38,185 bases of DNA, from NCBI GenBank assembly GCA_944384855.1, contig CALWUY010000044.1:1-38185 (forward strand), in the 5' to 3' direction. Positions 9,095 through 33,066 of this stretch are shown here, piece after piece. The notes beneath the pieces were generated by a model. The model saw nothing but the letters and a program-made list of their open reading frames with translations, searched no databases and was not told the origin of the DNA. The stretch is from an uncultured Clostridia bacterium (GTDB lineage Bacteria; Bacillota; Clostridia; Oscillospirales; Acutalibacteraceae). Both the position numbers and the translations under genes were made by a program. Every line of letters begins with the position of its first letter. Position 1 is the stretch's first letter.

Positions 9095-9123
9095 TTGAAA
9101 TTTAGTTAAATTTATGGTAAAAT
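9095..9123 (+). promoter_or_regulatory. promoter of the LacI-family regulator gene
   Basis: TTGAAA (9095-9100) and TAAAAT (9118-9123) are 17 nt apart, with the start codon at 9159. The spacer contains GTTAAATTTA (9105-9114), the same half-site seen near the other two locus promoters, so autoregulation is plausible. Confidence 0.65.
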
Positions 9124-9158
9124 TTATTTACAACAATTATTATAAGGGGTGGCGGTTA

Positions 9159-12403: not shown

Positions 12404-12592
12404 ATATTTATCAAGAAATGGTAAAATATTTACTAAATTTATTAAATTTTATATTCTGCCGGGGGTTTTTGTTTTTAACTGTAAAATATGCTGAATGACT
12501 GTACCGTATCATTTCATACGGCAAATATACAACACACTGCAAAAGCTGAAAAAGGCAGATTTAAAATTATTTTATCTTCGGAGGGCGGGCCT

Positions 12593-14092
12593 ATGATAGT
12601 AAAACATAAAATAAAGCGTCTGGTGTCCTTTTTGCTTACACTTTTAATCGCTGCGGTTATACCGTTCAGCTTTTCGGCATCTGCAGGAGGCGAAAGCGCG
12701 GGAGGTACTACATATTATATATCCTCATCTGACGGAAACGATGAAAATTCCGGTACAAGTGAGTCTTCGCCATGGAAAACCCTTTCAAAGCTTTCCGGAC
12801 TGACCCTTACCGCCGGTGACAGGGTGCTTTTGAAAAGCGGAGACCTGTGGGTAGAATCGGCTGAGATATACGCACCCTGCGGAAAGCCGGAAAATCCTGT
12901 AATAATCGGAAGCTACGGCGAGGGAGAAAAACCGCAGCTGAGACTTTTTGAAGACACTGTCGAAAAATATGCAGATACGCCGGTACTTTATATTGAGGAT
13001 GCCGAGTGGCTTGAAATAGACGGTCTTGATATCGGGTTCTGCGGTGTGGGAATAAACCTTCATTATGATAACACATATAATAAGGAACACGTAAAAATCA
13101 AAAATACGCATTTTCACGATATTTACGGTTTTTACCAGCTTGACCGCGCGGATATAACATTGTTTCCGCACGCGGCCGGTATTATAGTAACCCGCAGTAT
13201 GGCAATACCGGGTTACGAACAGCCTGCCCTCAAAGGACTTTATATTGAAAACTGCACAAGTTATGACGCGGGGTCGCTTTATACATACGGCGGAGCGATA
13301 GGCGGTTCCTATCCGGCGGTAGAGGGACTTTACGTTACAGACTGCGTAATGGAAAATAACGGAATTTACGGTATCGCAATAGCAAACAACATAGGCGGAT
13401 ATATGGATAACTGCAAGATAATTGACTGCGGCTCACGGTATGCTCCTATGGGTTCAATGGGAATTATGATATCGTGCGAAGGATTTACCATAATGAATTC
13501 CGAAATAGCTTTCCAGCAGCGGCTTGAGGATAACCCCGACGGCGGCGGAATAGATTTTGAGCATCTTACGTATGATGTGGATATCATAAACTGCTATATA
13601 CACGACAACTCCGGTGTAGGAACAATGTTTTTCAATTCGGGCGCAGATGAAACTCACCAGAATAAACGTATAAGATATATTTCGAATGTTTTTGAAAACA
13701 ATAACCAAAATGTTTCTAACGTGGGCGGGGCGGAACTGATATCGATACCGCTCTATTCGCTGGTTGACGGCGCAATAATAAATAACAGATACATGGAAAG
13801 TGAAAATCCGCTTACAATGTATATGGATGCATCGGTGGAAATAGCCGGCAACCGTTCATATTCTAAAGAACTTCAGGGAAAGGTATGGCCGATACTTGAT
13901 TTTGACGATGTAAGGGATTACGTAATAAACGGGAAACCGCTGCCGCTTCCGGATGATGAAGATCTTTCTGTCAGCACGTTTGACATAAGGCAATATCTTA
14001 TCGGAGTTATATGCGGATTCGGGGTAGTAATTATTGCGGCAGCAGCAGTAATTATTATCAGGACTATAAAGAAAAGGCGGGTTCGTAAATGA
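12593..14092 (+). CDS. Exported right-handed parallel beta-helix protein with C-terminal membrane anchor
   Basis: The product is 499 aa from ATG 12593, chosen because GGAGGGCGGG lies just upstream and the protein then opens with a signal peptide (basic KHKIKRL, hydrophobic core, ASA-like cleavage near residue 31). Residues about 38-460 form a pectate-lyase-like beta-helix. It opens with TTYYISSSDGNDENSGTSES, PWKTLSKL and VIIGSYGEGEKPQL, and has coil motifs such as IENCTSYDAG and IINCYIHDNSGVGTMFF. Residues about 469-489 are a transmembrane helix followed by KKRRVRK, placing the helix domain outside the cell. It is paralogous to the beta-helix part of the dockerin protein at 15945. Polysaccharide lyase or glycosidase activity is likely but unproven. 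The stop overlaps the next start (ATGA). Confidence 0.87.
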   Translation: MIVKHKIKRLVSFLLTLLIAAVIPFSFSASAGGESAGGTTYYISSSDGNDENSGTSESSPWKTLSKLSGLTLTAGDRVLLKSGDLWVESAEIYAPCGKPENPVIIGSYGEGEKPQLRLFEDTVEKYADTPVLYIEDAEWLEIDGLDIGFCGVGINLHYDNTYNKEHVKIKNTHFHDIYGFYQLDRADITLFPHAAGIIVTRSMAIPGYEQPALKGLYIENCTSYDAGSLYTYGGAIGGSYPAVEGLYVTDCVMENNGIYGIAIANNIGGYMDNCKIIDCGSRYAPMGSMGIMISCEGFTIMNSEIAFQQRLEDNPDGGGIDFEHLTYDVDIINCYIHDNSGVGTMFFNSGADETHQNKRIRYISNVFENNNQNVSNVGGAELISIPLYSLVDGAIINNRYMESENPLTMYMDASVEIAGNRSYSKELQGKVWPILDFDDVRDYVINGKPLPLPDDEDLSVSTFDIRQYLIGVICGFGVVIIAAAAVIIIRTIKKRRVRK

Positions 14093-14886
14093 GTAAAAGA
14101 AAACTTTTTTCAGCTTTGACGGCAGTAATCATTTTGGCAGTTTTCTGCCACGGACCGATTTCCGTATCGGCAGAAGAGCCAAAGACAGATTATGTGCTGT
14201 CACGGGATTTTACATATACCGCGGGTGTATGGCAGTATTACTGGTATAATGACGGTTACAATCCGCTTATGTATGACGGTCAGCGGGAAGCATGGCACGG
14301 TGAGGAATACGGAACCGCCGCAAGTTCCGTACTGGTAACAAAGGATATGATGTGGCATCCGGGCACAGCAGGTTATACCACAGTGGCTTTCACGGCGCCG
14401 GAGTCGGGAAGTGTGACTGTCGGAATGGAACAGCCGCTTGAATTGCTCAATCCCGAACTGAGCGACGGTACGGTTTTTTCTGTGATATCGGATTATCAGA
14501 TGATCGGAGAACAGCACCTTTTGACTAAGGAAAATCCCAAGCAGGAATTTGAACCGGTCACAATAGACGTATATAAGGGTCAGAATATTTACTTTTATTT
14601 ATATATGAATACTAACAATGCGGGAGACTCTACCCGCGTTACACCGTATATAAAATACAATGAGTTTAAAGAAGTACCTGTTCCCGAGAAGTCGGAAGAG
14701 GAGAAAGAAGAAGCCGAGCCGGCGCTTAGAACCGATGTTTCTGCGGTGGAACTTCCCGATGAAAACCAATCCTCCCGTATTGATGTAATTTCAATTGCTT
14801 CAGGAGCTGCTTCGGCAATAGGTTTTTCCGCAATTGTATTTGCGGTAGTGCTCATGATAAAAAGAATACGCCGGACTAACAAGTAA
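14089..14886 (+). CDS. Exported single-module membrane-anchored protein (repeat-module family)
   Basis: The product is 265 aa. A signal peptide (SKRKLFSALTAVIILAVFC... to about residue 27) is followed by one copy of the locus's repeated beta-sandwich-like module (about 38-195). Its landmarks are TAGVWQYYWYNDG, a VAFTAPESGSVTVGM strand pair, a VDVYKG-like turn and NNAGDSTRVTPYIKY. An acidic, proline-rich linker (EKSEEEKEEAEP) leads to a transmembrane helix (about 235-257) and a basic tail. The ATG overlaps the previous stop by 4 nt, so the two are translationally coupled and may form a pair: a beta-helix enzyme and a small binding partner. A carbohydrate-binding role is inferred from context; no known CBM family is recognised. 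Confidence 0.75.
   Translation: MSKRKLFSALTAVIILAVFCHGPISVSAEEPKTDYVLSRDFTYTAGVWQYYWYNDGYNPLMYDGQREAWHGEEYGTAASSVLVTKDMMWHPGTAGYTTVAFTAPESGSVTVGMEQPLELLNPELSDGTVFSVISDYQMIGEQHLLTKENPKQEFEPVTIDVYKGQNIYFYLYMNTNNAGDSTRVTPYIKYNEFKEVPVPEKSEEEKEEAEPALRTDVSAVELPDENQSSRIDVISIASGAASAIGFSAIVFAVVLMIKRIRRTNK
14200..14670 (+). repeat. single copy of the repeated module in the 265-aa protein
   Basis: One divergent copy of the same module, recognisable by YTAGVWQYYW, TVAFTAPESGSVTVGM, VTIDVYKGQNIYFYLYMN and TRVTPYIKY in the same order as in the two larger proteins. It is the only extracellular domain of its protein, so it is likely an independently folding unit. Confidence 0.7.
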
Positions 14887-14977
14887 TTTTCAGTGTTTTA
14901 ATTTTATGGCTTTATAGCAATATAAAACATACTGCTTAATAGTAAAGAAAACACTTCAGAGAAGGGCGGTTTACAAA

Positions 14978-15919
14978 ATGGCTGATACAGAATGGTTTTA
15001 TAAGAAAAAATGGGGAATTTTTGTACATCATCTTTACGGAGGCGATGTAGCAAGGCGAACCGAGAGAGGAGAAGAACCGGGAGAGCCCCGCGGCTGGCTT
15101 GAAAGGCTTGAGTGTTTTGATGCGGAACGTCTTGCAAAGCAGCTTCACGAGATAGGTGCGGGATATTTCTGTATAACTCTTCAGCAGCAAAGCCAGTATC
15201 TTTTGGTACCGAGTCTTCGGCATGCGGAGATAACCGGATATAAGCCCGGTACGGTCATGCCAGAAAGCCGTGATATTGTAGAGGAACTTTACGCGGCACT
15301 TTCCAAATACTGCATAGACCTTATGCTTTATTTTACCGGAGACGGACCTTTGGCTGACGAGCAGGCGGGAAACGCTTACGGATACACAACTCATGCAAAG
15401 CCCGTAACAGTAGATTTTGTACGCAAATGGGGCAGTGTACTTGAGGAACTGTCGGTGCGCTACGGAAAAAAAGTAAAGGGCTGGTGGCTTGACGGATGTC
15501 ATCCATGTATAGAGTACGATGAGGAAAAGTGGGGGATACTTAAATCCGCGATTTTAAAAGGAAATCCGGACGCTATAGTGGCTTTCAACGCTTCGGTTGT
15601 AGACCGGGTAAAAAGTTTTTCTCCGCTTGATGATTACACAGCAGGAGAAAGAAACGCGTTTGACGATATTCCGGACAGCCGGTTTACAGACGGCAAACAA
15701 TGGCATATTTTTTCATTTCTCGGTTATCACAGCGGAGCGGATATTCTGACTCCGGCGTGGGCGGCTCCGAGAAGCCGTTATTCAGCAGATTATATGCATG
15801 ATTTTGTAAGCGAGGTAACTTCCAGAGGAGGCGTTGTCACCATCGACGTTTCAATGGACGATTACGGCAATATAGACAGTGCTCAGCTTGAGGTCTTACG
15901 GGCTTTAAAAAACATATAA
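14978..15919 (+). CDS. Short GH29-like (alpha-L-fucosidase-fold) glycosidase
   Basis: The product is 313 aa, shorter than typical GH29 enzymes (about 430-600 aa) because the C-terminal beta-sandwich is missing. It has no signal peptide. The barrel opens with KKWGIFVHHLYGG, comparable to the KFGIFIHWG start of GH29, followed by AERLAKQLHEIGAGYFCIT. The strand VKGWWLDGCHP carries D172, in the position of the GH29 nucleophile Asp. The usual general-acid position is variable in this family and I cannot assign it. It might act on fucosyl, galactosyl or related links, or be an inactive relative. It is unusual as a cytosolic enzyme lying among four exported proteins. The ribosome binding site GAAGGGCGG stands about 8 nt upstream. 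Confidence 0.72.
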   Translation: MADTEWFYKKKWGIFVHHLYGGDVARRTERGEEPGEPRGWLERLECFDAERLAKQLHEIGAGYFCITLQQQSQYLLVPSLRHAEITGYKPGTVMPESRDIVEELYAALSKYCIDLMLYFTGDGPLADEQAGNAYGYTTHAKPVTVDFVRKWGSVLEELSVRYGKKVKGWWLDGCHPCIEYDEEKWGILKSAILKGNPDAIVAFNASVVDRVKSFSPLDDYTAGERNAFDDIPDSRFTDGKQWHIFSFLGYHSGADILTPAWAAPRSRYSADYMHDFVSEVTSRGGVVTIDVSMDDYGNIDSAQLEVLRALKNI

Positions 15920-15944
15920 ATATTTTATGAAAGGAACCACGGCT

Positions 15945-18900
15945 ATGAAAAGATCAAAACTACTTGCATTACTGCTTTCTTTAACGCTTATCGCGGGATC
16001 ATTGCCGATGTTCGGCACTACTGTCTTGGCTGCAGAAACGCCTGACAGCATTACTTTCAATGCGCAGCAGGATTTTTCACTTGAACAAAATTCGAACGGG
16101 GTCTGGAGGTATCAATATTCTTCGGGCGACGCCGTAAACGGATACACCTTTACAGATTTGCCGCTTAACGGTACACAGTGGGGCGACGCTGCCGTGACCG
16201 GCAGTGTGTATCCGTCACCTGACCAGGTTACGGAGGGCGCTGTAAATAACAGCCTTTTTATTTATCCTGTAAGCCATCTTAACGATGCCGTGCTTACATT
16301 TACCGCGCCGTACAGCGGAGTAATAATACTAAAAATGGCGAACGGCGCTGTTTTTGCGCCCGCAACCAGAGGCGGAAGCAAGGCGGCAAGGCTTATAGTC
16401 CGGCATAATGATAAAAACATACGGACAGAAAATATTGACGGCACTAACAACACACCCGGCAGCCGGGTTTTCGAAGATACAATGATTCTTACCGTAAAAG
16501 CCGGAGATACATTGAGATTCATGGTCGGCAGGAACATACCTGAAGGCGTCTATGTTACCATGAATCCCGAGATAACCTATACACAGATTATTGAGACAAA
16601 GTACAACGCGTTTGAGGATTATTCGACCGAGAAAAATCCCAACGGCGTATGGAGTTATGTCAGCAGAAGCTCTTCTGAAAATGAGTTTACGCTTATTACT
16701 CAGTACGCTAACGGCAGCTGGCAGAATTCTTACGGTTCTTTGCTTACCGCGCCGGACTGGGTAGTTTCCGCTGAACCTAATGCTATTCAGATAGGCACAA
16801 ATGATCAGACGAGTGATGTGGCGTTAGCCTTCACAGCGCCTTTCGACGGCAAGATAAACATCCGTATGACAAACGGCGGCGTTTATGCCCCGCAGATCAG
16901 CACTCCGGGTGTAGTAAGATTTAATCTTATTAAAAATACAGAGACTTTAAGAAGTTTTACAGTATACAATTATAACAGCAACGGCGAAAGACTTTTTGCC
17001 GATACAATGACCTTAGACGTAAGGGCAGGCGACAAGCTTTATTTCGCGGTTGGAAGAAACGAGCCGATAGGCGGTTCTATAGCTTTATTTAATCCTGAAA
17101 TAGAATATATCGAATACGGAGACAAAACGGTATTTACCGCGGTAGAAGATTATTCTGACGTAAACAATCCTTCCGGAGTTTGGAGCTATCAGGATTATCT
17201 TAACGGTGTGTACACTTATGATATCTACAATGCGGAAAGCAATACATGGCAGCATTCCACCGGCTTCAGTACGATTTCTTATCTTACAAACGATCAGGTG
17301 ACCGGCAAAGAGGCACTTATGCTGACAACTCATAATAAGGGTGAAAACGCGGTAGTTACCTTTACTTCGCCGTATTCGGGTGAAATAGCCGTAAGTATGG
17401 CAAACGGCGGAGTTTTTGCGCCTACTACCAATCACGGCGTCAATCCGGGCAACGCGGTATTTACCATGACTCATAACGAGGAAGTTATACGAACCGCTGA
17501 ACTTGATAATTCTGTATTAGACTTCTTCAACGATACCGTGACGCTTACTGTATCCGCAGGCGACACGATACGCTTTAAGGTAGACAGACTCAACGGCGGA
17601 TGGCCGGAGTCTTCTATAAGGCTTTCTCCGAGAATAGAATTCCTGTCGGTTTATGAGGAGACGGGAAGAACTTTCTACATAGATTCCGTTTCAGGTTCGG
17701 ACAGTTATTTGGGAACAAGCGAGTATGCTCCTTGGCAGTCGCTTTCAAAACTTGCCGATATTGATTTGGGTGCGGGTGACAGTATACTTTTAAAGCGCGG
17801 CAGTGTTTGGAATACCCAGCTCATACTCAATAATGTACGGGGTACAGAGCAGTCTCCGGTAGTAATAGGAAGCTACGGGGAGGGCGAACAGCCCAAAATT
17901 GATCTGGGGATTACTGATGATCCCGAAACTGATTTTATTGAAACAGCTACACCCTGCGTACTTATAAACAATTCTGAAGGCCTTGAAATAAACGATCTGT
18001 ACCTAACCGGATCAGGAATAGGAATAGATTTTTATTATAAGGAAAGCTTTAACAACGAATACATAAAGATTTCAAACTGCACATTTAAGGATCTTACCGG
18101 TTTTGCTCAGCCCGAAAGCAGCGAGGGCAATACCGGAAGATACGGCTTTGCAGGCGCTGTATGCGTAAGCGGTGAATCCTATACTCTCGGAATCGCAGAT
18201 CCGTTGGTTATAGGCTTGTTTGTTGACGGCTGCGTTTCAGAAGGCTGCGGTTCGCTTATAACCTATGCCGCCTCTCCCTCTTGCACAAAAGAGTCGCGCG
18301 GCGCGGATATAAACGGACTGTTCATCACAAACTGCACCATGCGTGAAAATGATTATTACGGCACTTTTATCGGAAGCGACGGCTTTATGTCGGACTGCAC
18401 CATTACGGACTGCGGTCAGGCTGAGTACTTTGCGCCGGGAACTACCGGAATAATGATTTCTGCCAAGAATTTCGCGGTCATAAATACTGAAATATCAGGG
18501 CAGAAACGCGGCGGGGTCCCGCATGACGGATGCGCCATAGATTTTGAGCATCTTTGTGAGAATGTAACGGTGGAAAACTGTTATATCCATGATAACGAAG
18601 GCGTCGGCGTGATGTTCTATGACTCCAATAACGCTAATAACGGAGCAAACGTGAACTGTACCGTGAAAAACAACGTATTTTCAAACAATGCAGGCGGTTT
18701 TGCAAGCTCCAACGGTAACTTCCCCTCGACAGACATTTGGGTAACCTACGGCGCATATTACTCACTTGAGGACAGCACGATTACCGGAAACCGCTACTAC
18801 AATTCAAATCCGGGATATCAGTTTTTCACCGCGCGTGAAAATGCCGGGGCAATAGGGCAGGAGCCGCAGGTTCCTTCTGTGATAGAAAACAATACTTCGT

Positions 18901-19688
18901 TTGACCCGGCAAGCGAGCAGCTTACATATCTTGCCGATAAAGCGGCATTGCTTGAGGATTACCGCGTAATTTTTGAAGATTACAATACAAGCGGATACAC
19001 GGTTGATAAAAGGACCGGAAAGCAGTTCGAAAACGCAGTTGTTTCTCAGGATATTTACTCATTCAGCGAAGAGTTTTCTTCAAATATGGAGAACTGGGAT
19101 GCGGTATATTATTTGAACGGATGGCAGAATATGCAGTGGGATCCTTCGCAGAATTATTATTCATACCAGCTCGGCGGTGTGATAGGAGACGGGTTTGCGC
19201 ATCCTTCGTCCACTCAGGCTGCAGCCTTCAGGTTTACGGCGCCGAAAACCGGCAGAGTGCTTATTGATACAGAGGATATGATCGCGGTAAGCGGAGGCGG
19301 AGACGGAGTTGTAATATCACTGCTTGACAATGATCTGAATCTTATCTGCGATCCGATTACGCTTGATTCCGAGCGCCCTTCGGCTGAATTAGAAGAGATT
19401 TACCTTGACGTAAATATGGGAGATTCAATTTATTTCTACATAAGCAAGCGGGAAAACAATGCCAACGATTATGTAACTATCAGGCCGAGAGTTTCTTATG
19501 TATATTGCTATAAAAGTCTTAACGGCGATGATATAATAGACATACTGGATCTGATAACGCTTAAAAAAGCAGTAACTGAGCCGGAGTCATCGGATATTGA
19601 CGCATACAGCGCTGATATAGACGGCGATACTTTTGTCACAGCAGTTGATTTAGTACTGATGAGAAAATATCTTATGGAAACATTCTGA
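15945..19688 (+). CDS. Large exported modular beta-helix protein with C-terminal type I dockerin
   Basis: The product is 1247 aa from ATG 15945; GAAAGGA at 15929-15935 precedes this ATG, and an in-frame ATG at 15927 is too close to it. Order of parts: signal peptide (1-31); three repeated modules (about 36-215, 220-390 and 395-570); a parallel beta-helix (about 577-1000) paralogous to the protein at 12593, with YIDSVSGSDSYLGTSEYAPW and IDFEHLCENVTVENCYIHDN; a divergent fourth module (about 1038-1188); and a dockerin (about 1189-1247). The dockerin has two calcium-loop/helix repeats: NGDDIIDILDLITLKKAV, whose first loop position is Ser not Asp, and the canonical DIDGDTFVTAVDLVLMRKYL. It should dock to a cohesin on a scaffold encoded elsewhere. 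It probably cuts or binds a plant polysaccharide. Confidence 0.87.
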   Translation: MKRSKLLALLLSLTLIAGSLPMFGTTVLAAETPDSITFNAQQDFSLEQNSNGVWRYQYSSGDAVNGYTFTDLPLNGTQWGDAAVTGSVYPSPDQVTEGAVNNSLFIYPVSHLNDAVLTFTAPYSGVIILKMANGAVFAPATRGGSKAARLIVRHNDKNIRTENIDGTNNTPGSRVFEDTMILTVKAGDTLRFMVGRNIPEGVYVTMNPEITYTQIIETKYNAFEDYSTEKNPNGVWSYVSRSSSENEFTLITQYANGSWQNSYGSLLTAPDWVVSAEPNAIQIGTNDQTSDVALAFTAPFDGKINIRMTNGGVYAPQISTPGVVRFNLIKNTETLRSFTVYNYNSNGERLFADTMTLDVRAGDKLYFAVGRNEPIGGSIALFNPEIEYIEYGDKTVFTAVEDYSDVNNPSGVWSYQDYLNGVYTYDIYNAESNTWQHSTGFSTISYLTNDQVTGKEALMLTTHNKGENAVVTFTSPYSGEIAVSMANGGVFAPTTNHGVNPGNAVFTMTHNEEVIRTAELDNSVLDFFNDTVTLTVSAGDTIRFKVDRLNGGWPESSIRLSPRIEFLSVYEETGRTFYIDSVSGSDSYLGTSEYAPWQSLSKLADIDLGAGDSILLKRGSVWNTQLILNNVRGTEQSPVVIGSYGEGEQPKIDLGITDDPETDFIETATPCVLINNSEGLEINDLYLTGSGIGIDFYYKESFNNEYIKISNCTFKDLTGFAQPESSEGNTGRYGFAGAVCVSGESYTLGIADPLVIGLFVDGCVSEGCGSLITYAASPSCTKESRGADINGLFITNCTMRENDYYGTFIGSDGFMSDCTITDCGQAEYFAPGTTGIMISAKNFAVINTEISGQKRGGVPHDGCAIDFEHLCENVTVENCYIHDNEGVGVMFYDSNNANNGANVNCTVKNNVFSNNAGGFASSNGNFPSTDIWVTYGAYYSLEDSTITGNRYYNSNPGYQFFTARENAGAIGQEPQVPSVIENNTSFDPASEQLTYLADKAALLEDYRVIFEDYNTSGYTVDKRTGKQFENAVVSQDIYSFSEEFSSNMENWDAVYYLNGWQNMQWDPSQNYYSYQLGGVIGDGFAHPSSTQAAAFRFTAPKTGRVLIDTEDMIAVSGGGDGVVISLLDNDLNLICDPITLDSERPSAELEEIYLDVNMGDSIYFYISKRENNANDYVTIRPRVSYVYCYKSLNGDDIIDILDLITLKKAVTEPESSDIDAYSADIDGDTFVTAVDLVLMRKYLMETF
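16050..19510 (+). repeat. four copies of the repeated beta-sandwich module in the dockerin protein
   Basis: Copies are at about 16050-16590, 16600-17113, 17125-17660 and 19055-19510. The shared pattern is an aromatic/acidic opening (FxAxxDYS), GVWSY, a tryptophan strand, AxLxFTAPYSGxIxxxMxNGGVFAP, an acidic FxDTxTLxVxAGDxIxFxV hairpin and a final NPEIxY strand. Copies 2 and 3 match copies 1 and 2 of the next gene more closely than they match each other. Confidence 0.85.
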
Positions 19689-19806
19689 TTTTGTTGCAGT
19701 TATTACAGACATACCTTTACAGCTTTATAGAACTCAATTCAAGTTTTTTGGCGGCGCCTTACGGTGACAGTTATGGAACCGCCGTTACAAACAGGAGGTT
19801 AATCGC

Positions 19807-22800
19807 ATGAATTTAAAAAAGAAAGCATTAACGCTGCTGTCGGTTATTGTGGCTTTGACGCTTGCTCTTTCTTCAGTGGATATACTGTCCTTCGCCGATC
19901 AGTCGGGGGACGGGACGTCCAAAGCAGAGAAGTATAATGCGTTTGAGGAGTTTTCGGAAACATCAAATCCCAGCGGGGTATGGAGCTATATGTACCGCAC
20001 TGATACAGCGAGTGATTTTGTGCTTATAAACGAGGTATACAGCGGTATCTGGCAAAACGCCAACGGTTTTTTGCAGGCTGCGGCTGACTTGGTAGTATCG
20101 ACAGTGCCTAATGCTGTCCAGCTTGGTACAAATGACCAGACAAGTGAGGTTGCGCTTGCTTTTACCGCGCCTGATGACGGTAAAATAACCGTGCGTATGA
20201 CTAACGGCGGAGTATATGCTCCGGGAATAGGCACACCTGACGTTGTCAGGTTCAGTCTTATTAAAAATACCGAAACCTTAAGAAGCTTTACCGTGTACAA
20301 TTATAACAGCAATAATGACAGGCAATTTGCAGACACTATGACGCTTGACGTCAAATCCGGAGATATGCTTTATTTTGCAGTGGGAAGAAATCTTCCGGTA
20401 GGAGGTGCGTACGCTGTTTTCAATCCGGAAATCGAGTACATTGAATACGGTGACAAAACAGTGTTTGACGCGGTAAGCGAATATTCCACTGATGGAAATC
20501 CGTCAGGTACCTGGAGTTATCAGAGCTTTTCAAACGGAGAATACACCTATGATACCTTTAACGTAGAAACAGGTCGGTGGCAGGCAGCTTCTGGCCTTAC
20601 CACGTTAGAAATGCTTACAAACGACGAGGTAAGCGGTAATCCGGCGATAATGATGACTACCCACAGCAAAGGAGATAAGGCGGTTCTTACGTTTACTTCT
20701 CCTTATTCGGGTGAAATAGAGGTAAGCATGACTAACGGCGGCGTTTACGCTCCGGCTACAAATGCTCAAAATTCTCCCGGAAATGCGGTATTTGCAATGC
20801 TGCATAATGAGAAAGAAATTACTTCTGCAGAACTTGACGCGTCTGTAAAGGATTTCTTCAGCGATACCGTGACGCTCAGTGTCTCGCAAGGAGATACATT
20901 GAGATTTACGGTAGACCGTTTGGATGCCGGCAAACCGGATTCGGCTGTCCGTTTTGCTCCGAAAATAGAATATCTCTCGATAGGAGAGGATGAGGACGAT
21001 GAGCCGGATATAAAAGAGGAATATGACGCGTACGCAGATTACCGCACGGAATATGATCAGGCGGATGTTTGGCAGTATCTTAAAAGGGATACCGCTACCG
21101 GAGCCGAAAGTAAGTTATATTATTCGGCCGGAAGCTGGGGTGTTCCGGGAGATGGTTCTGTAACATCAAGTACCCAGGATATGGTGACCGGCAAACCCGC
21201 ATTGTCATTGCATCCGGGTATTACGGTTGACGCGGTAGTTTCCTTTACGGCTCCTTATTCAGGCACAATAGAATTAAGTATGGCAAACGGCGGTGTATTT
21301 GCGCCTATGAGTGCAGACGGTATACTGTTCAGTGTGTATATAGGAGATACTCTTTATTACAGCGAAGTATCAAGTCCTGCAACTGTGGATGAAGGCAAAC
21401 GGGTATTTGCGGATACCAGAACGCTTGAGGTGGAAGCCGGCGACGTAATTTACTTTGTGGTAAATAATAACGGCAATAATGCGAGCGACAGCACCTTCCT
21501 TAACCCGCATATAAAATACACCGAAATAACCGATACAGATAACAAGACCCTGCGTTTTGCAGAGAACGATGTTATTACGGTAAGCGACACCTCAAAGGAC
21601 GGATTCAGCATTTCATGGCCGTCTGCCAGAGGCGGCAAGGGCGGATACAGTTATACCGTATACATTTCGGAGCAGCCGTTTGAAGGCGCTCCGGCTTCCG
21701 GAGGGGTTTCGGTAAATTCTGCCCGCAACCACCGGTTTGAAGGACTTACTCCGGGCAAAAATTATTATATTGCAGTCACTGCAACCGACGGCGAGGCAAT
21801 TGCTGTACTCACGGCAGATACTCCCGTAATGACGGTAAGCCGGGCGTTTATATTCGACGCTTATGACGATTTTACAAGCAAGGTACAGACTTCGGTTTGG
21901 TCTTACTGTTCGGTTTCATCTGACGGCAGTATGGATGAGCTTGTTTGGACAGAAACAGTTTGGGGGAACGCTTCGGACGGTACCGTCACCGCGGAAGCCA
22001 GCGATCTGGTAACCGGAAAACCTGCGCTTGCGGTCACACCAGGCAACGATAAGGATACAGCGGTAATATTTACTGCTCCGTATTCGGGAACTGTTGAGAT
22101 CTCGCTCAGAAACGGCGGTATCTTTGTACCGTATAACGGGGCGGGAAATGATTATGACGGTATTAATTTTTCTCTCATGGTGAACGGATATGAAACAGCT
22201 TCATTCAACGCGGTAAACGCAAGTAATTCACATCCGTCATCAGCCGGGGATATGTATAAAGGGCGTGTTTTTGACGGCGTTTACACATCGCAGGTAAAAG
22301 CCGGAGACAAAATTATTTTTACCGTAAACAAAAATAAGGCGGCCGGCAACGATATAACCTATTTTGACCCCGAAATAATTTATACACAGGTTTCCGGCGG
22401 CACCGATAATCTGAAATTTACACCTTCAAGAAGCATCAGCGAAAGCGACGTCACAGATAAATCATTTACGGTTTTCTGGCCGGGAGCGGTAGGCGGTACG
22501 GGCAATTACAGCTATACGCTTTATCTTTCCGATAAGCCAATAGAAAGCATACCGTCGGCAGGAGGTATAAGTTTAGGGAACAAATTAAGCTATGAAGTGA
22601 AAAACCTCAGTGCTTATACTAATTACTATGCCGCCGTAACCGTAAACGACGGTGTAAACACCGCTTATCTTATAAGAACAACACCTATTTCCACTATAGG
22701 CAACAGCTATAAATTTACTGCTGTGGGCGGATATACCGAAGGCGTTCAGCCTATCAGCACTCCGTGGCGGTATTACTATACGGAATACGGTAAGCATGAA

Positions 22801-24372
22801 AACTTCAAGGTGATGCAGTGGGATGAACAGACAGGTTGTTTCGGGTCTGCGTCTACCGCGACTGCGGCTAAGACCGACAGCGATCTTGTAACCGGCAAAC
22901 CATCGCTTGTCCTTGTTCCGACTTTGAGCTCGGATTCCGTGCTGGCATTTATTGCTCCGTTTACCGGCAGAATAACCGTCAAAATGGAAAATGACGGTGT
23001 ATTCGCACCTTTGAACGGTACGCCGCAGCAGTTTGACGGTATAAACTTCAAATTTTATCATAACGATAAAGTTATTTATTCTAAAGATGCGGTTACCGGA
23101 CAAAATTCTCATTCGGACCGTTGTTTCGGAGTTCCGATTTCATTGGATGTTAAAAAAGGCGATGTGCTTTACTTTACAGTCAATTCAAACAAAACCGCAG
23201 ACTGTGACTCTGTCTTTTTAAATCCTTCTGTGACGTATACCTTTGTAGAAAAGGGAAGCGATGCGTTCGGATTTCTTCCGGGTGCGGAGGTGGCAATGAG
23301 CGATGCTACCGCGACTTCGTTTGTGCTTAACTGGTCAGCGGCATTTTCTCCTGTGGCAGAACGCATAACATACAGCGTTTATCTGTCTGAGAAGCCTTTT
23401 GAAGGTGAGCCTGCAGGCAAGCCTCACTATACGGGCGAGAACACTTACGCTGAATGCAAGGGACTTGAAATAGGACGCACATATTACGTTTACATTAAGG
23501 CTGTCGGTGCTTCAGGGGCTGTTGCGGCGCTTAAAAACAGCAGCTTTACATCATACTGTCCGGTTTATAATGCTTATGACGACTTTTCAACCGATAACAG
23601 CCCGGGTATATGGAATTATACCAGAAGAAGCTACGATGCGGAGCTTAACGAATATTCATATACACTGCTTAATTACGATGAAAAATCAGGCGTTTACGGG
23701 TCTGCTGAGGGCGGACTGATAAGTATAGCAGAATCTGATATGGTTACCGGAAACCCTGCAATAAGCATGCATCCAGGTACTGCAGGCAGGGCGGCGGCGC
23801 TTGTATTTACCGCACCTTATTCGGGAAATATCACCGTAACCCTTAAAAACGGAGCTGTTTTCACACCTATGAACGGTAAGGATCAGGAGTTTGACGGCAT
23901 CAGATATTCGGTACTTAAAGGAGAGGATCAGCTTTTCCTTGCAGAACGCGTGAACAGTGAAAATAATGCACAGGATAAACGGATAGGTACAGAAACAATA
24001 ACTACATATATAGAGTACGGGCAGAGAATTTACTTTATTGTAGATGCCAACAAGACAAATGCGTCGGACATAACCTTCCTCAATCCCGAAATAGCCTATC
24101 AAAATATTACGGGAGGCAGCGGGGTTCCGCCTACAGACGGATTTAATACCGAAGCTGTTACCGAGGATACTGCGCAGCAGGAGGATAAGATGTTTATTTC
24201 CTCGTTCCGTGAAAATCTCTATACCAAGACCGCGGGAAAAGCTATACCGTTTCCGGCTGATGAAGAACCGTTTACTTCATATCTGCCGTATATTATAGCG
24301 GCAGCCGTTTTGGCGGCAGGCTGTGCGGTGCTTATCGGATTCTTAATACCCAGAAAGAAAATCAAGGAGTGA
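19807..24372 (+). CDS. Very large membrane-anchored surface protein with six repeated modules and three FN3-like domains
   Basis: The product is 1521 aa with a ribosome binding site AGGAGG. Order: signal peptide (1-31); modules at about 41-215, 219-393 and 405-576; FN3-like domain (581-679); module (682-863); FN3-like (868-964); module (967-1150); FN3-like (1155-1249); module (1252-1435); linker; transmembrane helix (about 1493-1514) and tail PRKKIKE. Each FN3-like domain shows a strand-B Trp (FSISWPSA, FTVFWPGA, FVLNWSAA) and a tyrosine-corner-like LTPGKNYYIAVTATDG. There is no catalytic domain and no LPXTG motif. It most likely captures a repeating glycan at the cell surface near the importer encoded directly downstream, a role like SusD-type proteins in Bacteroidota. 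That role is inferred. Confidence 0.82.
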   Translation: MNLKKKALTLLSVIVALTLALSSVDILSFADQSGDGTSKAEKYNAFEEFSETSNPSGVWSYMYRTDTASDFVLINEVYSGIWQNANGFLQAAADLVVSTVPNAVQLGTNDQTSEVALAFTAPDDGKITVRMTNGGVYAPGIGTPDVVRFSLIKNTETLRSFTVYNYNSNNDRQFADTMTLDVKSGDMLYFAVGRNLPVGGAYAVFNPEIEYIEYGDKTVFDAVSEYSTDGNPSGTWSYQSFSNGEYTYDTFNVETGRWQAASGLTTLEMLTNDEVSGNPAIMMTTHSKGDKAVLTFTSPYSGEIEVSMTNGGVYAPATNAQNSPGNAVFAMLHNEKEITSAELDASVKDFFSDTVTLSVSQGDTLRFTVDRLDAGKPDSAVRFAPKIEYLSIGEDEDDEPDIKEEYDAYADYRTEYDQADVWQYLKRDTATGAESKLYYSAGSWGVPGDGSVTSSTQDMVTGKPALSLHPGITVDAVVSFTAPYSGTIELSMANGGVFAPMSADGILFSVYIGDTLYYSEVSSPATVDEGKRVFADTRTLEVEAGDVIYFVVNNNGNNASDSTFLNPHIKYTEITDTDNKTLRFAENDVITVSDTSKDGFSISWPSARGGKGGYSYTVYISEQPFEGAPASGGVSVNSARNHRFEGLTPGKNYYIAVTATDGEAIAVLTADTPVMTVSRAFIFDAYDDFTSKVQTSVWSYCSVSSDGSMDELVWTETVWGNASDGTVTAEASDLVTGKPALAVTPGNDKDTAVIFTAPYSGTVEISLRNGGIFVPYNGAGNDYDGINFSLMVNGYETASFNAVNASNSHPSSAGDMYKGRVFDGVYTSQVKAGDKIIFTVNKNKAAGNDITYFDPEIIYTQVSGGTDNLKFTPSRSISESDVTDKSFTVFWPGAVGGTGNYSYTLYLSDKPIESIPSAGGISLGNKLSYEVKNLSAYTNYYAAVTVNDGVNTAYLIRTTPISTIGNSYKFTAVGGYTEGVQPISTPWRYYYTEYGKHENFKVMQWDEQTGCFGSASTATAAKTDSDLVTGKPSLVLVPTLSSDSVLAFIAPFTGRITVKMENDGVFAPLNGTPQQFDGINFKFYHNDKVIYSKDAVTGQNSHSDRCFGVPISLDVKKGDVLYFTVNSNKTADCDSVFLNPSVTYTFVEKGSDAFGFLPGAEVAMSDATATSFVLNWSAAFSPVAERITYSVYLSEKPFEGEPAGKPHYTGENTYAECKGLEIGRTYYVYIKAVGASGAVAALKNSSFTSYCPVYNAYDDFSTDNSPGIWNYTRRSYDAELNEYSYTLLNYDEKSGVYGSAEGGLISIAESDMVTGNPAISMHPGTAGRAAALVFTAPYSGNITVTLKNGAVFTPMNGKDQEFDGIRYSVLKGEDQLFLAERVNSENNAQDKRIGTETITTYIEYGQRIYFIVDANKTNASDITFLNPEIAYQNITGGSGVPPTDGFNTEAVTEDTAQQEDKMFISSFRENLYTKTAGKAIPFPADEEPFTSYLPYIIAAAVLAAGCAVLIGFLIPRKKIKE
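19930..24110 (+). repeat. six copies of the repeated module in the 1521-aa protein
   Basis: Copies are at about 19930-20450, 20461-20985, 21019-21535, 21850-22395, 22705-23255 and 23560-24110. Copies 4 to 6 and, in part, 3 carry a longer DLVTGKPAL.....P segment, and copies 4 to 6 carry YDGINF or FDGI before the central strands, so two subtypes exist. FN3-like spacers occur only after copies 3, 4 and 5. Confidence 0.83.
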
Positions 24373-24378
24373 TATTTA

Positions 24379-25728
24379 ATGAAAAAAATCATAAAGATCA
24401 TATCGGTGGTAATGTCGGTTGTACTGATATCCGGGCTTTTCGGCGGCTGCGGTTCAAAGGAAGAAAAGACCGGCAAGGTTAAGATAATTGCTCCCGACCG
24501 TGTGCTTAACGAGGTGGGAATAAATGCGTTTGTAAAACAGAAGCAGGAGGAATTTGATAAACTGTACGGAGATGAAATAGAAGTAGAGCATATACTTCCG
24601 GTTGCCTCTTCAGACGTAAACGATGTGCAGAATACCTCTGCGATTCTTCTCGGAAATGATGCTCCTTCATTTGTGGGCGTATCATCTACCATTTTTATGA
24701 AGGATCTTTACAATATGGGTCTTGTAAAAGATATCACCGCTGCCGTAGAGGGAAATGAATCCTTTAACAGCAATCTTGAAGCTTCAATAGAAGCATGCAA
24801 GTACAGTGACGGCAAAATTATAGGTTATCCCACTAACATGGAGATACCGCTTCTTGGTTTTTACAACAGCGCTTTGACCGAAGCCGGATATGACCCGGAA
24901 AATTTCAGCTGCGAGACATGGGACGAATATTATGAGATAGCTAAAAAGCTTACTACATCTGCACATGCAGGCGCTTCGATCTACGCATCTGAATTTTTCC
25001 TTTGGCCGAATAACTGGTTCCTTGCGAACGGAGCGGAACTTGCGGTACAGAATTCCGACGGTACAATAAAACTGAATTATACAGACAAAAAGGTTACGGA
25101 TACCATTGAATTTTTAAGAAAGCTTTACGGAGACGGTCTTACGAACGATAACATAGGATTCACCGATGTTGATAATATGTTTACCTTGCTTTACAATAAG
25201 ACAGTATCAAGCTTTACCATGTATCCCACCTGGATTTCGCGTTTTATTGACGCCGGCATCAATCCGAACGAAATCACACTCAAAAAATTCCCCAAAGGTC
25301 CGAGCGGAGAATATAAGTCTGCAATGTATGTTGCTTCAAAAATCTTTAATTCTTCACTCAGTGATGAACAGTTGGATGCCGCAATAAAATACGTGGCGTT
25401 TATGAATTCAGAAGAATACTGGAATGACTATTTCAAGTATTGCTCGGAAAACAGTATTTCCATCCTTAACATTCCTACCGTAAAGGATGTCGATTGGTGG
25501 TCTTCGCTTACAGATTTTCCTGAGCAGTGGATATCGGTAACCAAGGAAGCGCTGGAAACAGCTACCGATACATCTCTTAATTCAAACGGATACTCAACAT
25601 ATATTTCCGCGGTTCTTCCCGGAATAATTTCAAGCAGCGACACAGATGTGGCAGCCGAGATGGAAAAAGCGGCCCAAACCACCGAAAACGAGTGGCTGAA
25701 CGATTTTAATAAATCTGTAAAAAAATAA
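24379..25728 (+). CDS. Sugar ABC transporter substrate-binding lipoprotein (family 1)
   Basis: The product is 449 aa. The N-terminus is a lipoprotein signal with basic KKIIK, a hydrophobic core and C24 in LFGGC. The mature part reads like family 1 extracellular solute-binding proteins: IIAPDRVLNEVGIN, NDAPSFVGVSSTIFMKDLYN, KIIGYPTNMEIPLLGFYNSA, TWDEYYEIAKKLT and FPKGPSGEYKSAMYVASKIF. It would be tethered outside the membrane and deliver oligosaccharides to the two permeases that follow. The gene begins 7 nt after the six-module surface protein, with AAGGAG as ribosome binding site, so surface capture and import are tightly linked. The substrate is not readable from sequence. Confidence 0.93.
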   Translation: MKKIIKIISVVMSVVLISGLFGGCGSKEEKTGKVKIIAPDRVLNEVGINAFVKQKQEEFDKLYGDEIEVEHILPVASSDVNDVQNTSAILLGNDAPSFVGVSSTIFMKDLYNMGLVKDITAAVEGNESFNSNLEASIEACKYSDGKIIGYPTNMEIPLLGFYNSALTEAGYDPENFSCETWDEYYEIAKKLTTSAHAGASIYASEFFLWPNNWFLANGAELAVQNSDGTIKLNYTDKKVTDTIEFLRKLYGDGLTNDNIGFTDVDNMFTLLYNKTVSSFTMYPTWISRFIDAGINPNEITLKKFPKGPSGEYKSAMYVASKIFNSSLSDEQLDAAIKYVAFMNSEEYWNDYFKYCSENSISILNIPTVKDVDWWSSLTDFPEQWISVTKEALETATDTSLNSNGYSTYISAVLPGIISSSDTDVAAEMEKAAQTTENEWLNDFNKSVKK

Positions 25729-25746
25729 TCATCGCAGGTGAATCAA

Positions 25747-26658
25747 ATGACTATTCGCGAGGGGAAAAAACCTTTTAGGCTATGGATAAAATCTCAGCCG
25801 GGTAAAAGATGCATGCTTGGTCTTGTACTGTTGATTCCTATGTTTGCGGCACTTATGATTTTTCAGTACTATCCTATAGTACAATGCATATTTCAATCAT
25901 TTTTCCAGTACAAGATAACCGATTTGCCGGGTGATTTTGTAGGCATATCGAATTATAAAACGGTATTTTCATCAGATTTATTTTACACTTATTTTAAAAA
26001 TACCGTAATACTGTATCTTTTCAATATTCTGTTTGGATTTACCATTCCGATTTTTCAGGCGTTAATGCTTTTTCAGCTTAAAAGGCCTCGGGGTATTTTC
26101 AGGTATTTATATATTTTCCCTACCGGTATCACAGCTCTTGCCGGACTTTCGGTATGGAAATATATCTGGGAGCCTGACGGCGGTTTAGCAAACTTTTTGA
26201 CCGGCTCATTAGGGCTGGGAACATTTGACTGGCTGTATGACGAGAGTTTAGTTAAATTCTGTCTGCGATTTCCCGGCATACTTGGCGGAGGTATGGCTGT
26301 AGTGCTGTACCTTGTTACAATGAACAATATATCAGATCAGCAGTTTGAGGCCGCCAAGATAGACGGTGCTAACGGATGGCAGATTTTACGGTATATAACT
26401 CTTCCCGGAATAAAGGGAATGGTTTACATACAGCTGCTTTTAAGCCTTACAGGCAGTCTGCTTGCGTTTGAGGATGTATATATGATGACTCAGGGAGGCC
26501 CCGGTTTTTCATCAACCACTTTGGTACTCGGAGCATATATAAAGGCCTTTAAGGAACAGAATTTCGGTGTGGCGATGGCCATGTCTGTGGTAATCCTTAT
26601 ATGTACCCTATGCATAACTTCGTTTGTTTATTATATGCAGAACAGAAATGAGGATTAA
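25747..26658 (+). CDS. Sugar ABC transporter permease 1 (MalF/UgpA type)
   Basis: The product is 303 aa from ATG 25747. The GTG at 25738 is rejected because it is part of the ribosome binding site AGGTGA. About six transmembrane segments are visible, starting with MLGLVLLIPMFAALMIF. FQSFFQYKITDLPG and FVGISNYKTVFSS are typical of the family just after the first helix. The EAA loop that contacts the ATPase reads EAAKIDGANGWQILRYITLP. It forms a heterodimeric channel with the next gene's product. No ATPase gene is present in the cluster, so a shared MsmK-like ATPase from elsewhere is expected. Confidence 0.94.
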   Translation: MTIREGKKPFRLWIKSQPGKRCMLGLVLLIPMFAALMIFQYYPIVQCIFQSFFQYKITDLPGDFVGISNYKTVFSSDLFYTYFKNTVILYLFNILFGFTIPIFQALMLFQLKRPRGIFRYLYIFPTGITALAGLSVWKYIWEPDGGLANFLTGSLGLGTFDWLYDESLVKFCLRFPGILGGGMAVVLYLVTMNNISDQQFEAAKIDGANGWQILRYITLPGIKGMVYIQLLLSLTGSLLAFEDVYMMTQGGPGFSSTTLVLGAYIKAFKEQNFGVAMAMSVVILICTLCITSFVYYMQNRNED

Positions 26659-27985
26659 TGCCGTGAAAGACAAGACACTTAGAAAAAACAGAATAAAACC
26701 GCCGCTTGCGGATAAATTTCTTATAGGGGTATCCCTTACGCTTACACTGTTCTGGCTTTTATGCCTGTTTTTTCCGATATACTGGATGGTTGTATCTTCA
26801 TTCAAGGATGCAAGTATTCAGTACGCCGACCCGCCGGAATTCGGAATCACGGTACCTGACGCCTATACCCTGACGGTGGATTATACCGAAGAGCAGGCTG
26901 ATGAGTTAGGCAGCGAAGGTATGTATCGCGATGCAAACCTTTTGCTGTGGCGCATGTTTGGAATTAAAGGCACAAATATAGGCAGGGCGGTGGTTACGGC
27001 TACCGTAGAAGGTAATCCTGAAGTGACATATTCGCTGGATAAGGCAGATTATCAAATAAATTACTCGAATTTTTGGTCAAAGTCTGTGCTGTTAGCGTCT
27101 GATATTGACAGGGTATTGCCTCAGATAGAGGAAAAAGGTATTGTCGAGGTAGATGAAGAAACCGCTGCATTGCCGGAAAAAAAGAATACCAACAGTAAGA
27201 CTGAGGAAATGACGGAAACCTTTTCCACAGACGAAGACATTGTCGGACAAATAACCGGATGCAGCTATTGCAACAGCTACAGAAACTTTTTTGATAATTA
27301 CAAAATAGCCTGGGCTTATCCAAATAAGTTAGGTCTTGAAAGCGGTATGTTCAGGCCGGTTATTAACACCATTTACGTCGCCGTAATGCAGTTTGTGCTC
27401 ATAACCTTAATAACCTCTCTTGCAGCTTATTCGCTTTCAAAACTGTTGCCGAGACGCCTAAAGGGCAAGATCATGATAATTATTATGGCTTCGGGTATGG
27501 TTCCGTCAACCGTTACCCTCATACCCAAATATCAGGTGATACAGTCGATTGGAATTTCAAATACGCTTTGGGCGGTCATCCTGCCTACAGTTGCGGCATT
27601 CGGACAAATGCTTCTGTTCAAAGGTACTTTTGATGCTTTCCCGGATTCAGTGCTTGAGGCGGCGCGCATTGACGGCAGCGGAGAGATAAGGCTGTATTTT
27701 AAATTTGTTTTGCCCTCGGCTATGGGAGTAATAGGACTGGGTGCCATTACATCGTTTACAAGTGCGTGGAACGATTTCTTTTGGCCCATGATGGTATTGC
27801 GTGATCAGGAAAAATATACTGTAAGCCTTGTACTGAATATACTGCTTAACGGATCCGGAAGTTCTCCGGACTATTCTACGGCGCTGGCTTTGGGATTCCT
27901 GATTTCGATACCGACACTTTTAATATATGCCGTATTCCAGAAAACACTTACATACGGTTTTGATTTCAGCGGTTTAAAGGGATAA
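26648..27985 (+). CDS. Sugar ABC transporter permease 2 (MalG type) with a large extracytoplasmic insertion
   Basis: The product is 445 aa if it starts at ATG 26648 (11-nt overlap with the previous gene). GTG 26663, with AGG 9 nt upstream, is an equally good start. MalG-type permeases are normally about 270-300 aa. Here the first transmembrane helix (LIGVSLTLTLFWLLCLFFPI) is followed by about 175 extra residues (about nt 26810-27345) before the second helix (PVINTIYVAVMQFVLITLIT). The insert is outside the membrane by the positive-inside rule. It has beta-like segments, a charged stretch (EEKGIVEVDEETAALPEKKN) and a CSYC pair near its end. The rest is normal, with the EAA loop EAARIDGSGEIRLYFKFVLP and SFTSAWNDFFWP. 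Confidence 0.92.
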   Translation: MRINAVKDKTLRKNRIKPPLADKFLIGVSLTLTLFWLLCLFFPIYWMVVSSFKDASIQYADPPEFGITVPDAYTLTVDYTEEQADELGSEGMYRDANLLLWRMFGIKGTNIGRAVVTATVEGNPEVTYSLDKADYQINYSNFWSKSVLLASDIDRVLPQIEEKGIVEVDEETAALPEKKNTNSKTEEMTETFSTDEDIVGQITGCSYCNSYRNFFDNYKIAWAYPNKLGLESGMFRPVINTIYVAVMQFVLITLITSLAAYSLSKLLPRRLKGKIMIIIMASGMVPSTVTLIPKYQVIQSIGISNTLWAVILPTVAAFGQMLLFKGTFDAFPDSVLEAARIDGSGEIRLYFKFVLPSAMGVIGLGAITSFTSAWNDFFWPMMVLRDQEKYTVSLVLNILLNGSGSSPDYSTALALGFLISIPTLLIYAVFQKTLTYGFDFSGLKG

Positions 27986-30924: not shown

Positions 30925-30940
30925 TTTTTCGGAGGTTTTT

Positions 30941-33037: not shown

Positions 33038-33066
33038 AAGCCGCATCTTTTTGAGGAGGAAATTTT

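What the first reader, a model, noticed from the sequence alone, without database searches (positions are those of the whole stretch)
14089..24372. An 11-copy family of beta-sandwich-like modules in three neighbouring exported proteins
The module (about 150-185 aa; pattern GVWSY ... FTAPYSGxI..xMxNGGVFAP ... FxDTxTLxVxAGDxIxFxV ... NPEIxY) occurs once in the 265-aa protein, four times in the dockerin protein and six times in the 1521-aa protein. I recognise no named family for it. Its order of strands loosely recalls jelly-roll modules attached to secreted carbohydrate-active enzymes. Its presence in a membrane-only protein, around an enzyme domain and in a non-catalytic tandem array points to an independent glycan-binding or adhesive unit. 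A new CBM-like family is the simplest reading.
Basis: partly seen in the sequence, partly recalled or inferred. Interest (0 to 1): 0.85.

Follow-up and report, generated by a model that had tools for sequence, protein, structure and literature searches.

The report
Unnamed, probably sugar-binding protein module
A Clostridia bacterium carries eleven copies of an unnamed, probably sugar-binding protein module, shared between a secreted enzyme-like protein and the cell-surface proteins encoded beside it, and the module looks like a distant relative of a known family of carbohydrate-binding modules.

Summary
Eleven copies of one module (156-186 aa) lie in three exported proteins, 1 + 4 + 6. Each copy is recovered when the profile is built without its own protein: 41.8-181.8 bits, against at most 10.7 for 1000 shuffles of each protein. 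AlphaFold2 gives a confident all-beta sandwich (pLDDT 93). The best Pfam E among the 11 copies is 0.013.

Among 60 other genomes of the genus one has the same gene order, again with 11 copies. Two modules at the tip of the surface array are near-copies of two in the dockerin protein (69% and 62% identity).

I read it as an undescribed, sparsely spread CBM-like family holding one glycan for a docked beta-helix protein and for the cell surface beside an ABC importer. Sugar binding is untested; dbCAN/CAZy could not be searched.

The parts
14179..14670 (+). module copy 1, in the 265-aa protein (gene 14089-14886; N-terminal hydrophobic stretch and C-terminal TM by hydropathy)
   Evidence: orthologue in L107 (51% id, fork 100/100)
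16044..16592 (+). module copy 2, dockerin protein (gene 15927-19688), residues 40-222
16590..17120 (+). module copy 3, dockerin protein residues 222-398
   Evidence: 69% identical to copy 6
17121..17654 (+). module copy 4, dockerin protein residues 399-576
   Evidence: 62% identical to copy 7
17664..18992 (+). right-handed beta-helix domain of the dockerin protein (approximate limits); N-terminal stretch akin to GH136 lacto-N-biosidases
   Evidence: Pfam Beta_helix 2.2e-11; 5gqc E 1.9e-15 over residues 2-80 only; 37% identical to the beta-helix of 12488-14092
19044..19511 (+). module copy 5, dockerin protein residues 1040-1195, without the NGGVFAP motif
   Evidence: orthologue in L107 (43% id, fork 98/94)
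19518..19673 (+). type I dockerin
   Evidence: Pfam Dockerin_1 2.8e-8; one of 21 dockerin matches in the genome, which also has 3 cohesin matches
19921..20451 (+). module copy 6, 1521-aa surface protein (gene 19807-24372), residues 39-215
   Evidence: near-copy of copy 3
20452..20985 (+). module copy 7, 1521-aa protein residues 216-393
   Evidence: near-copy of copy 4
21010..21531 (+). module copy 8, 1521-aa protein residues 402-575
   Evidence: orthologue in L107 54% id
21535..21822 (+). FN3 linker 1 (approximate limits)
   Evidence: Pfam fn3 in the 1521-aa protein 8.4e-16, 3 stretches; alignment A8
21841..22395 (+). module copy 9, 1521-aa protein residues 679-863
   Evidence: orthologue in L107 55% id
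22402..22686 (+). FN3 linker 2 (approximate limits)
22702..23250 (+). module copy 10, 1521-aa protein residues 966-1148
   Evidence: orthologue in L107 47% id
23254..23541 (+). FN3 linker 3 (approximate limits)
23554..24111 (+). module copy 11, 1521-aa protein residues 1250-1435; the copy modelled by AlphaFold2
   Evidence: orthologue in L107 53% id
24271..24357 (+). C-terminal transmembrane segment of the 1521-aa protein (residues 1489-1517)
   Evidence: hydropathy peak 2.79
12488..14092 (+). membrane-anchored beta-helix protein, no module; overlaps the 265-aa gene by 4 bases
14978..15919 (+). GH29-like protein between the module genes (no signal peptide seen by eye, not tested)
   Evidence: Pfam Alpha_L_fucos 6.7e-15
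24379..27985 (+). ABC sugar importer: binding protein and two permeases, 6 bases after the 1521-aa gene
   Evidence: SBP_bac_1 3.4e-15, BPD_transp_1 1.3e-7 and 8.6e-12; spacing
9114..10139 (+). LacI-type regulator
   Evidence: a like gene in the same place in L107 (by eye)
27988..35007 (+). GH106, GH78-like and GHL6 genes downstream

Best explanation
The module is an undescribed family of CBM-like beta-sandwich domains, a distant relative of the CBM51/NPCBM family, that binds the glycan which this locus consumes. In the dockerin protein, three N-terminal copies and one C-terminal copy hold a beta-helix protein, probably an enzyme, on the glycan, while the dockerin plugs it into a cohesin-bearing scaffold. 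In the membrane-anchored 1521-aa protein, six copies, the last four separated by FN3 domains, form a surface array that keeps the same glycan or its fragments next to the ABC importer encoded 6 bases downstream; the 265-aa protein is a short version of that anchor. The two outermost array modules were copied from, or into, the dockerin protein, which would keep both proteins on one target. Shown: the copies, predicted fold, anchors by hydropathy, dockerin, gene order, conservation and block copy. Inferred: glycan binding, the copies' common ligand, that the beta-helix is catalytic. The ligand is probably a plant or host glycan with rhamnose, fucose and/or galactose, judging from the neighbouring enzyme families only.
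Confidence: 0.66

Rival explanations
1. Structural or spacer modules: the sandwiches only project the beta-helix and the array through the cell wall, like FN3 or Ig-like repeats, and bind nothing.
For: Tandem repetition; FN3 domains in the same protein; Big_2 domains beside the module in two other proteins; runs of up to nine copies elsewhere.
Against: FN3 already supplies spacing in the 1521-aa protein; four array copies keep one-to-one orthologues across species at 47-55% identity; a single copy sits alone before a membrane anchor (265-aa protein), where a spacer has nothing to space; kinship to a binding family.
Confidence: 0.17
2. Protein-protein or cell-cell adhesion modules of the C1q/TNF kind: the sandwiches bind protein partners or each other.
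Against: Profile comparison with three bacterial C1q sequences is at chance (score 12.7, probability 0.3%), though that alignment is thin; fewer residues align than with CBM51 (101-105 against 128-140).
Confidence: 0.12
3. The module is simply a divergent CBM51, to be filed in that family.
For: Top structural neighbour; consensus NPCBM hit E 9.2e-4; profile score 31.2 against at most 16.1 for permutations.
Against: Of 38 members scanned singly one shows NPCBM at all, at E 0.054, and none of the 11 window copies does at E 1. The N-terminal half has no NPCBM counterpart in the alignment.
Confidence: 0.15

Closest known systems
CBM51 / NPCBM (PF08305), e.g. 2vng from Clostridium perfringens GH98
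   Different: Below the Pfam cut-off wherever a score was shown; N-terminal half without counterpart; ligand unknown; own subfamily motif NGGVFAP in most window copies.
GH136 lacto-N-biosidase LnbX (NF047897; 5gqc)
   Same: The LnbX model is weakly matched by 4 of 11 window copies (best 1e-4) and 8 of 38 rows (best 6e-6). In the two matches whose positions were shown they are 774-933 (copy 11) and 801-940 (265-aa protein), beyond the solved part of about 600 residues, so LnbX probably carries a copy there. The beta-helices of the locus share its N-terminal stretch.
   Different: Outside that stretch the beta-helix does not align; a GH136I-type partner was not searched for; the LnbX cut-off (2500 bits) is not approached.
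Cell-surface glycan-binding proteins of gut Firmicutes, e.g. Sas20 of the Ruminococcus bromii amylosome (abstract and outline seen, PMC9112005)
   Same: Several binding domains in one non-catalytic surface protein, in an organism with a cellulosome-like complex.
   Different: Different protein (no comparison run); here membrane-anchored, encoded next to an importer, and sharing modules with a dockerin protein.

Membership tests
CBM51 / NPCBM (PF08305) | score at or above the Pfam gathering cut-off (23.9 bits) | tested here: not met
   not listed for any of 11 window copies at E 1; 1 of 38 rows at E 0.054; consensus 19.7 bits
CBM51 / NPCBM (PF08305) | beta-sandwich fold of the family | tested here: met
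CBM51 / NPCBM (PF08305) | homology by profile comparison | tested here: inconclusive
   score 31.2, probability 49%, 90 columns; permutations at most 16.1
CBM51 / NPCBM (PF08305) | binds galactose or blood-group glycans | not testable with these tools
   no binding data
carbohydrate-binding module in the CAZy sense | discrete folding unit joined to a carbohydrate-active enzyme | tested here: met
   compact AF2 model; joined to GH2, GH10 and SASA domains in other genomes; in the window joined to a beta-helix + dockerin whose activity is unknown
carbohydrate-binding module in the CAZy sense | demonstrated carbohydrate binding | not testable with these tools
   needs purified protein
carbohydrate-binding module in the CAZy sense | match to an existing CAZy/dbCAN family | not tested
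   dbCAN not available; among Pfam's CBM-named models only weak hits of single members (NPCBM 0.054, CBM_35_2 0.06)
C1q/TNF superfamily | profile similarity to C1q | tested here: inconclusive
   hhalign probability 0.3% with three bacterial C1q sequences; window-copy consensus Pfam C1q E 0.087, below cut-off; cerebellin chains E about 0.04-0.07
C1q/TNF superfamily | jelly-roll fold and trimer | tested here: inconclusive
GH136 (beta-helix of the dockerin protein) | GH136 sequence over the catalytic domain | tested here: inconclusive
   only the first 80-116 residues align to solved GH136 chains; catalytic Asp pair not located; AF2 model with this domain was poor (pLDDT 52.8)

The most novel reading that the evidence does not exclude
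The module founds a new carbohydrate-binding family, allied to CBM51 and spread sparsely through Bacillota, and in this genus the bacterium keeps its docked enzyme and its surface receptor on one glycan by copying module pairs between the two genes, so that receptor and enzyme specificity change together.
Probability: 0.35. Interest if true: 0.65.

Novelty: new variant of a known kind. Interest (0 to 1): 0.5.

Why it matters
The module has no model in the Pfam copy used here, yet it occurs in 16 of 391 class genomes sampled, the window's own included, and in runs of three to nine copies in 7 of 17 module-bearing frames looked at, so a part of how Clostridia may hold glycans goes unannotated. 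It probably also lies in an uncharacterised stretch of LnbX, a known milk-sugar enzyme. The block copy between dockerin protein and surface array gives a testable case of specificity being shared between a docked enzyme and a receptor.

Tried and rejected
Chance repetition: rejected by leave-one-protein-out profiles against 1000 shuffles per protein. Known domain: among the 11 copies the best Pfam E is 0.013 and the only NCBIfam hit below 0.01 is LnbX. In wider members some Pfam models come near or over their cut-off in an implausible way: Cir_N in one row (7.8e-5; 22.1 bits against 22.6 over 17 residues of the parent protein), and 4PPT_N and AbrB-like summed over the repeats of a nine-copy protein with no single stretch passing; I set these aside as chance. 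Solved homologue by sequence: A2 profile, only a natterin-like protein at E 0.33; A3 profile, cerebellin from 0.039 and CBM77 0.075. C1q: profile comparison at chance, with only three sequences. Intramolecular C1q-like trimers (three contiguous copies in each large protein): dropped, because the counterpart array in L107 has only two contiguous copies and other proteins have two to nine in a row. Mobile elements: tblastn of one typical relative found nothing in plasmids or phages; the 1521-aa protein found no relative among viral contigs. Beta-helix by structure: the AF2 model of beta-helix plus copy 5 had pLDDT 52.8, so I made no fold search with it. Viral Foldseek hits were weak (best TM 0.54) and serve only as a note for the C1q rival. 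Literature: searches listed no paper that I recognised, from titles and starts of abstracts, as being on this module; only open-licence papers are held, and supplements could not be read. PMC7335108 mentions two putative C-terminal carbohydrate-binding modules in a Roseburia GH136 protein (passages); I could not see which. PMC12997984 and PMC8106489: passages only.

Rows dropped: 9 of 63 rows from other proteins (those of L024, L057, L058) were left out, and like rows were not thinned, 12 of the 13 NPCBM matches were aligned (one, L142, left out), 13 of the 17 frames were scanned; A3 holds 38 of the 74 rows.
Full report
1. What is there. The 265-aa, 1253-aa (dockerin) and 1521-aa proteins hold 1, 4 and 6 copies of one module (alignment A2). 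Leave-one-protein-out profiles find all 11 copies at 41.8-181.8 bits; the best of 1000 shuffles of each protein gives 6.2, 10.7 and 10.4 bits. Hydropathy shows an N-terminal hydrophobic stretch in all three proteins and a C-terminal transmembrane segment in the 265-aa and 1521-aa proteins. The 1521-aa protein has three FN3 domains; the dockerin protein has a right-handed beta-helix and a type I dockerin. The genome (2.69 Mb, 96 contigs) has 21 dockerin and 3 cohesin matches. With one copy as query, all 11 matches in the genome are these; with the profile one more, distant, match appears on contig C32 (E 1.4e-9), in a 1649-aa protein with Big_2 domains in which an iterated profile marks five divergent modules. 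A solute-binding protein and a response-regulator-like gene lie beside it (these two names are my reading of the sequences, not a search result).

2. The locus. Around the module genes lie a LacI regulator, GH36, two GH78-like proteins (Bac_rhamnosid6H), GH106, a GH29-like protein, GHL6 and an ABC importer whose binding protein starts 6 bases after the 1521-aa gene. The sugars concerned are therefore likely rhamnose, fucose and galactose; this is inference from family names, and no activity was tested. The habitat of the bacterium is not known to me. That the class is Clostridia follows from a same-class genome (G532) whose modules are identical to those of Clostridium sp. 12(A).

4. Sequence kinship. 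Among the 11 copies the best Pfam E is 0.013 and the best NCBIfam hit is LnbX at 1e-4, against a whole-protein cut-off of 2500 bits. Among 38 wider members the Pfam hits are weak and scattered; the strongest, Cir_N at 7.8e-5 in one row, covers 17 residues in its parent protein and looks like chance. The consensus of those 38 hits NPCBM (the Pfam model of CBM51) at E 9.2e-4, below cut-off; the consensus of the 11 window copies does not, and shows C1q at 0.087. Profile comparison of the 38 rows with 12 NPCBM sequences gives score 31.2, E 1.8e-4, probability 49% over 90 columns; the 11 window copies give 27.2, probability 22%. Controls: 100 column permutations at most 16.1 and 15.2; reversed profiles 14.6 and 15.1; C1q 12.7 and 13.5; FN3, F5/8C and Big_2 12.1-16.5 (these alignments hold 6, 2 and 3 sequences). 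Positive control: window copies against 25 non-window rows 180.1, probability 99.8%. I take this as remote kinship to CBM51, not membership. Against it: the best PDB sequence hits of the same profile are cerebellins (C1q), E 0.039-0.065 for four single-domain sequences.

5. Spread. Matches (the window's own genome counted): 4 of 299 phylum genomes, 16 of 391 class genomes and 6 of 200 family genomes at E 1e-4, 4 of 61 in the genus, and with the 38-row profile 7 of 398 phylum genomes at 1e-5 (that profile holds rows from the own genome and three others of the seven, which match by construction, and one match, G022, is a 30-position hit in a 43-aa frame). No match in 72,556 plasmid and 50,697 phage records with one relative as query. 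Named carriers from the one genome scan: Clostridium sp. 12(A), [Clostridium] aerotolerans, Lacrimispora algidixylanolytica and a Hungatella MAG. In Clostridium sp. 12(A) a beta-helix gene with two modules follows a binding protein and two permeases (Pfam); the reading frames of the [Clostridium] aerotolerans locus are laid out alike. Partner domains in 14 scanned proteins (13 of the 17 module-bearing frames, plus L024): SASA (one), GH2 with NPCBM, F5/8C and FIVAR (one), GH10 (one), SLH (two), beta-helix (one, with SLH), Big_2 (two), F5/8C with FIVAR (one), SpvB/TcdB-mid/RHS (one), none in four, and only implausible repeat hits in one.

6. A sister locus. Of 60 other genomes of the genus three have matches: G898 with 11, G920 with 2 (best 1.4e-9) and G923 with 1 (1.1e-6); the last two loci were not looked at. 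In G898 the gene order of the window recurs: regulator, beta-helix/TM (506 aa), two modules/TM (476 aa), GH29-like, 3 modules + beta-helix + module + dockerin (1256 aa), five modules/TM (1341 aa), SBP, two permeases, GH78-like; there the contig ends. Pfam was run on the three module proteins; the other names there rest on likeness to the window's proteins, seen by eye. No GH106 lies between permease and GH78-like gene. On a tree of 22 modules and 4 outsiders, six window copies pair with a G898 copy at starred forks; window copies 6 and 7 (tip of the array) pair instead with copies 3 and 4 (dockerin protein) at 100/100, at 69% and 62% identity; at DNA level one 1064-bp block is 69% identical. 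By this tree the array's other four copies are older than the split of the two species. Amino-acid change is slow relative to silent change (dN 0.41-0.73; dS 1.7 or more, saturated in 6 of 11 pairs), so the copies are under constraint.

7. Conserved residues. Across 22 genus copies and 54 others (9 further rows left out) the most conserved are W20, Y22, F85, A87, P88, G91, D114, G115, G156, D157, F161, P178 and Y182 (numbering of copy 11). The 'NGGVFAP' stretch (99-105) belongs to the genus copies: P105 in 17 of 22, a gap in 44 of 54 others.

8. Link to GH136. The NCBIfam model of LnbX is matched by 4 of 11 window copies (best 1e-4) and 8 of 38 rows (best 6e-6); where positions were shown they are 774-933 (copy 11) and 801-940 (265-aa protein). 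So that enzyme probably carries a copy outside the part that was solved. Both beta-helices of the locus match solved GH136 chains only over the first 80-116 residues. They are 37% identical to each other and share a DG..IDFE motif with both counterparts in G898. I do not file them in GH136.

9. Verdict. Most likely mechanism: modules hold one glycan both for the docked beta-helix protein and for a surface array that feeds the neighbouring importer (0.66). Rivals: spacers (0.17), protein-binding C1q-like modules (0.12), divergent CBM51 proper (0.15; overlaps with the main reading, so the figures do not sum to one).

Noticed in passing
window 26624-27985: The second ABC permease (453 aa; 434 aa in G898) seems, by eye, to carry an insertion of very roughly 170 residues between its first membrane segment and the BPD_transp_1 part (which matches residues 266-436), an unusual extra domain kept in both species.
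   Followed up: no
window 35346-36104 (-): This 252-aa frame matches only the C-terminal domain of GH20C (PF18088); no catalytic part was listed for it, so it may be a fragment.
   Followed up: no
window 10198-12036 (-): A 612-aa protein between the LacI gene and the module genes has no Pfam match at E 0.001.
   Followed up: no
L024 (G000 contig C32:28000-37000): Second array-like protein of the same genome: 1649 aa, Big_2 domains and about five very divergent modules, beside what looks like a solute-binding protein.
   Followed up: partly
L132 (G964:C366): Three stretches of the module (two of them short, the last at 12.3 bits) lie in a frame with SpvB, TcdB-mid and RHS domains, so the module is not confined to sugar enzymes.
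   Followed up: no
L124 (G512:C11): A 1727-aa frame made mostly of nine tandem copies of the module.
   Followed up: no
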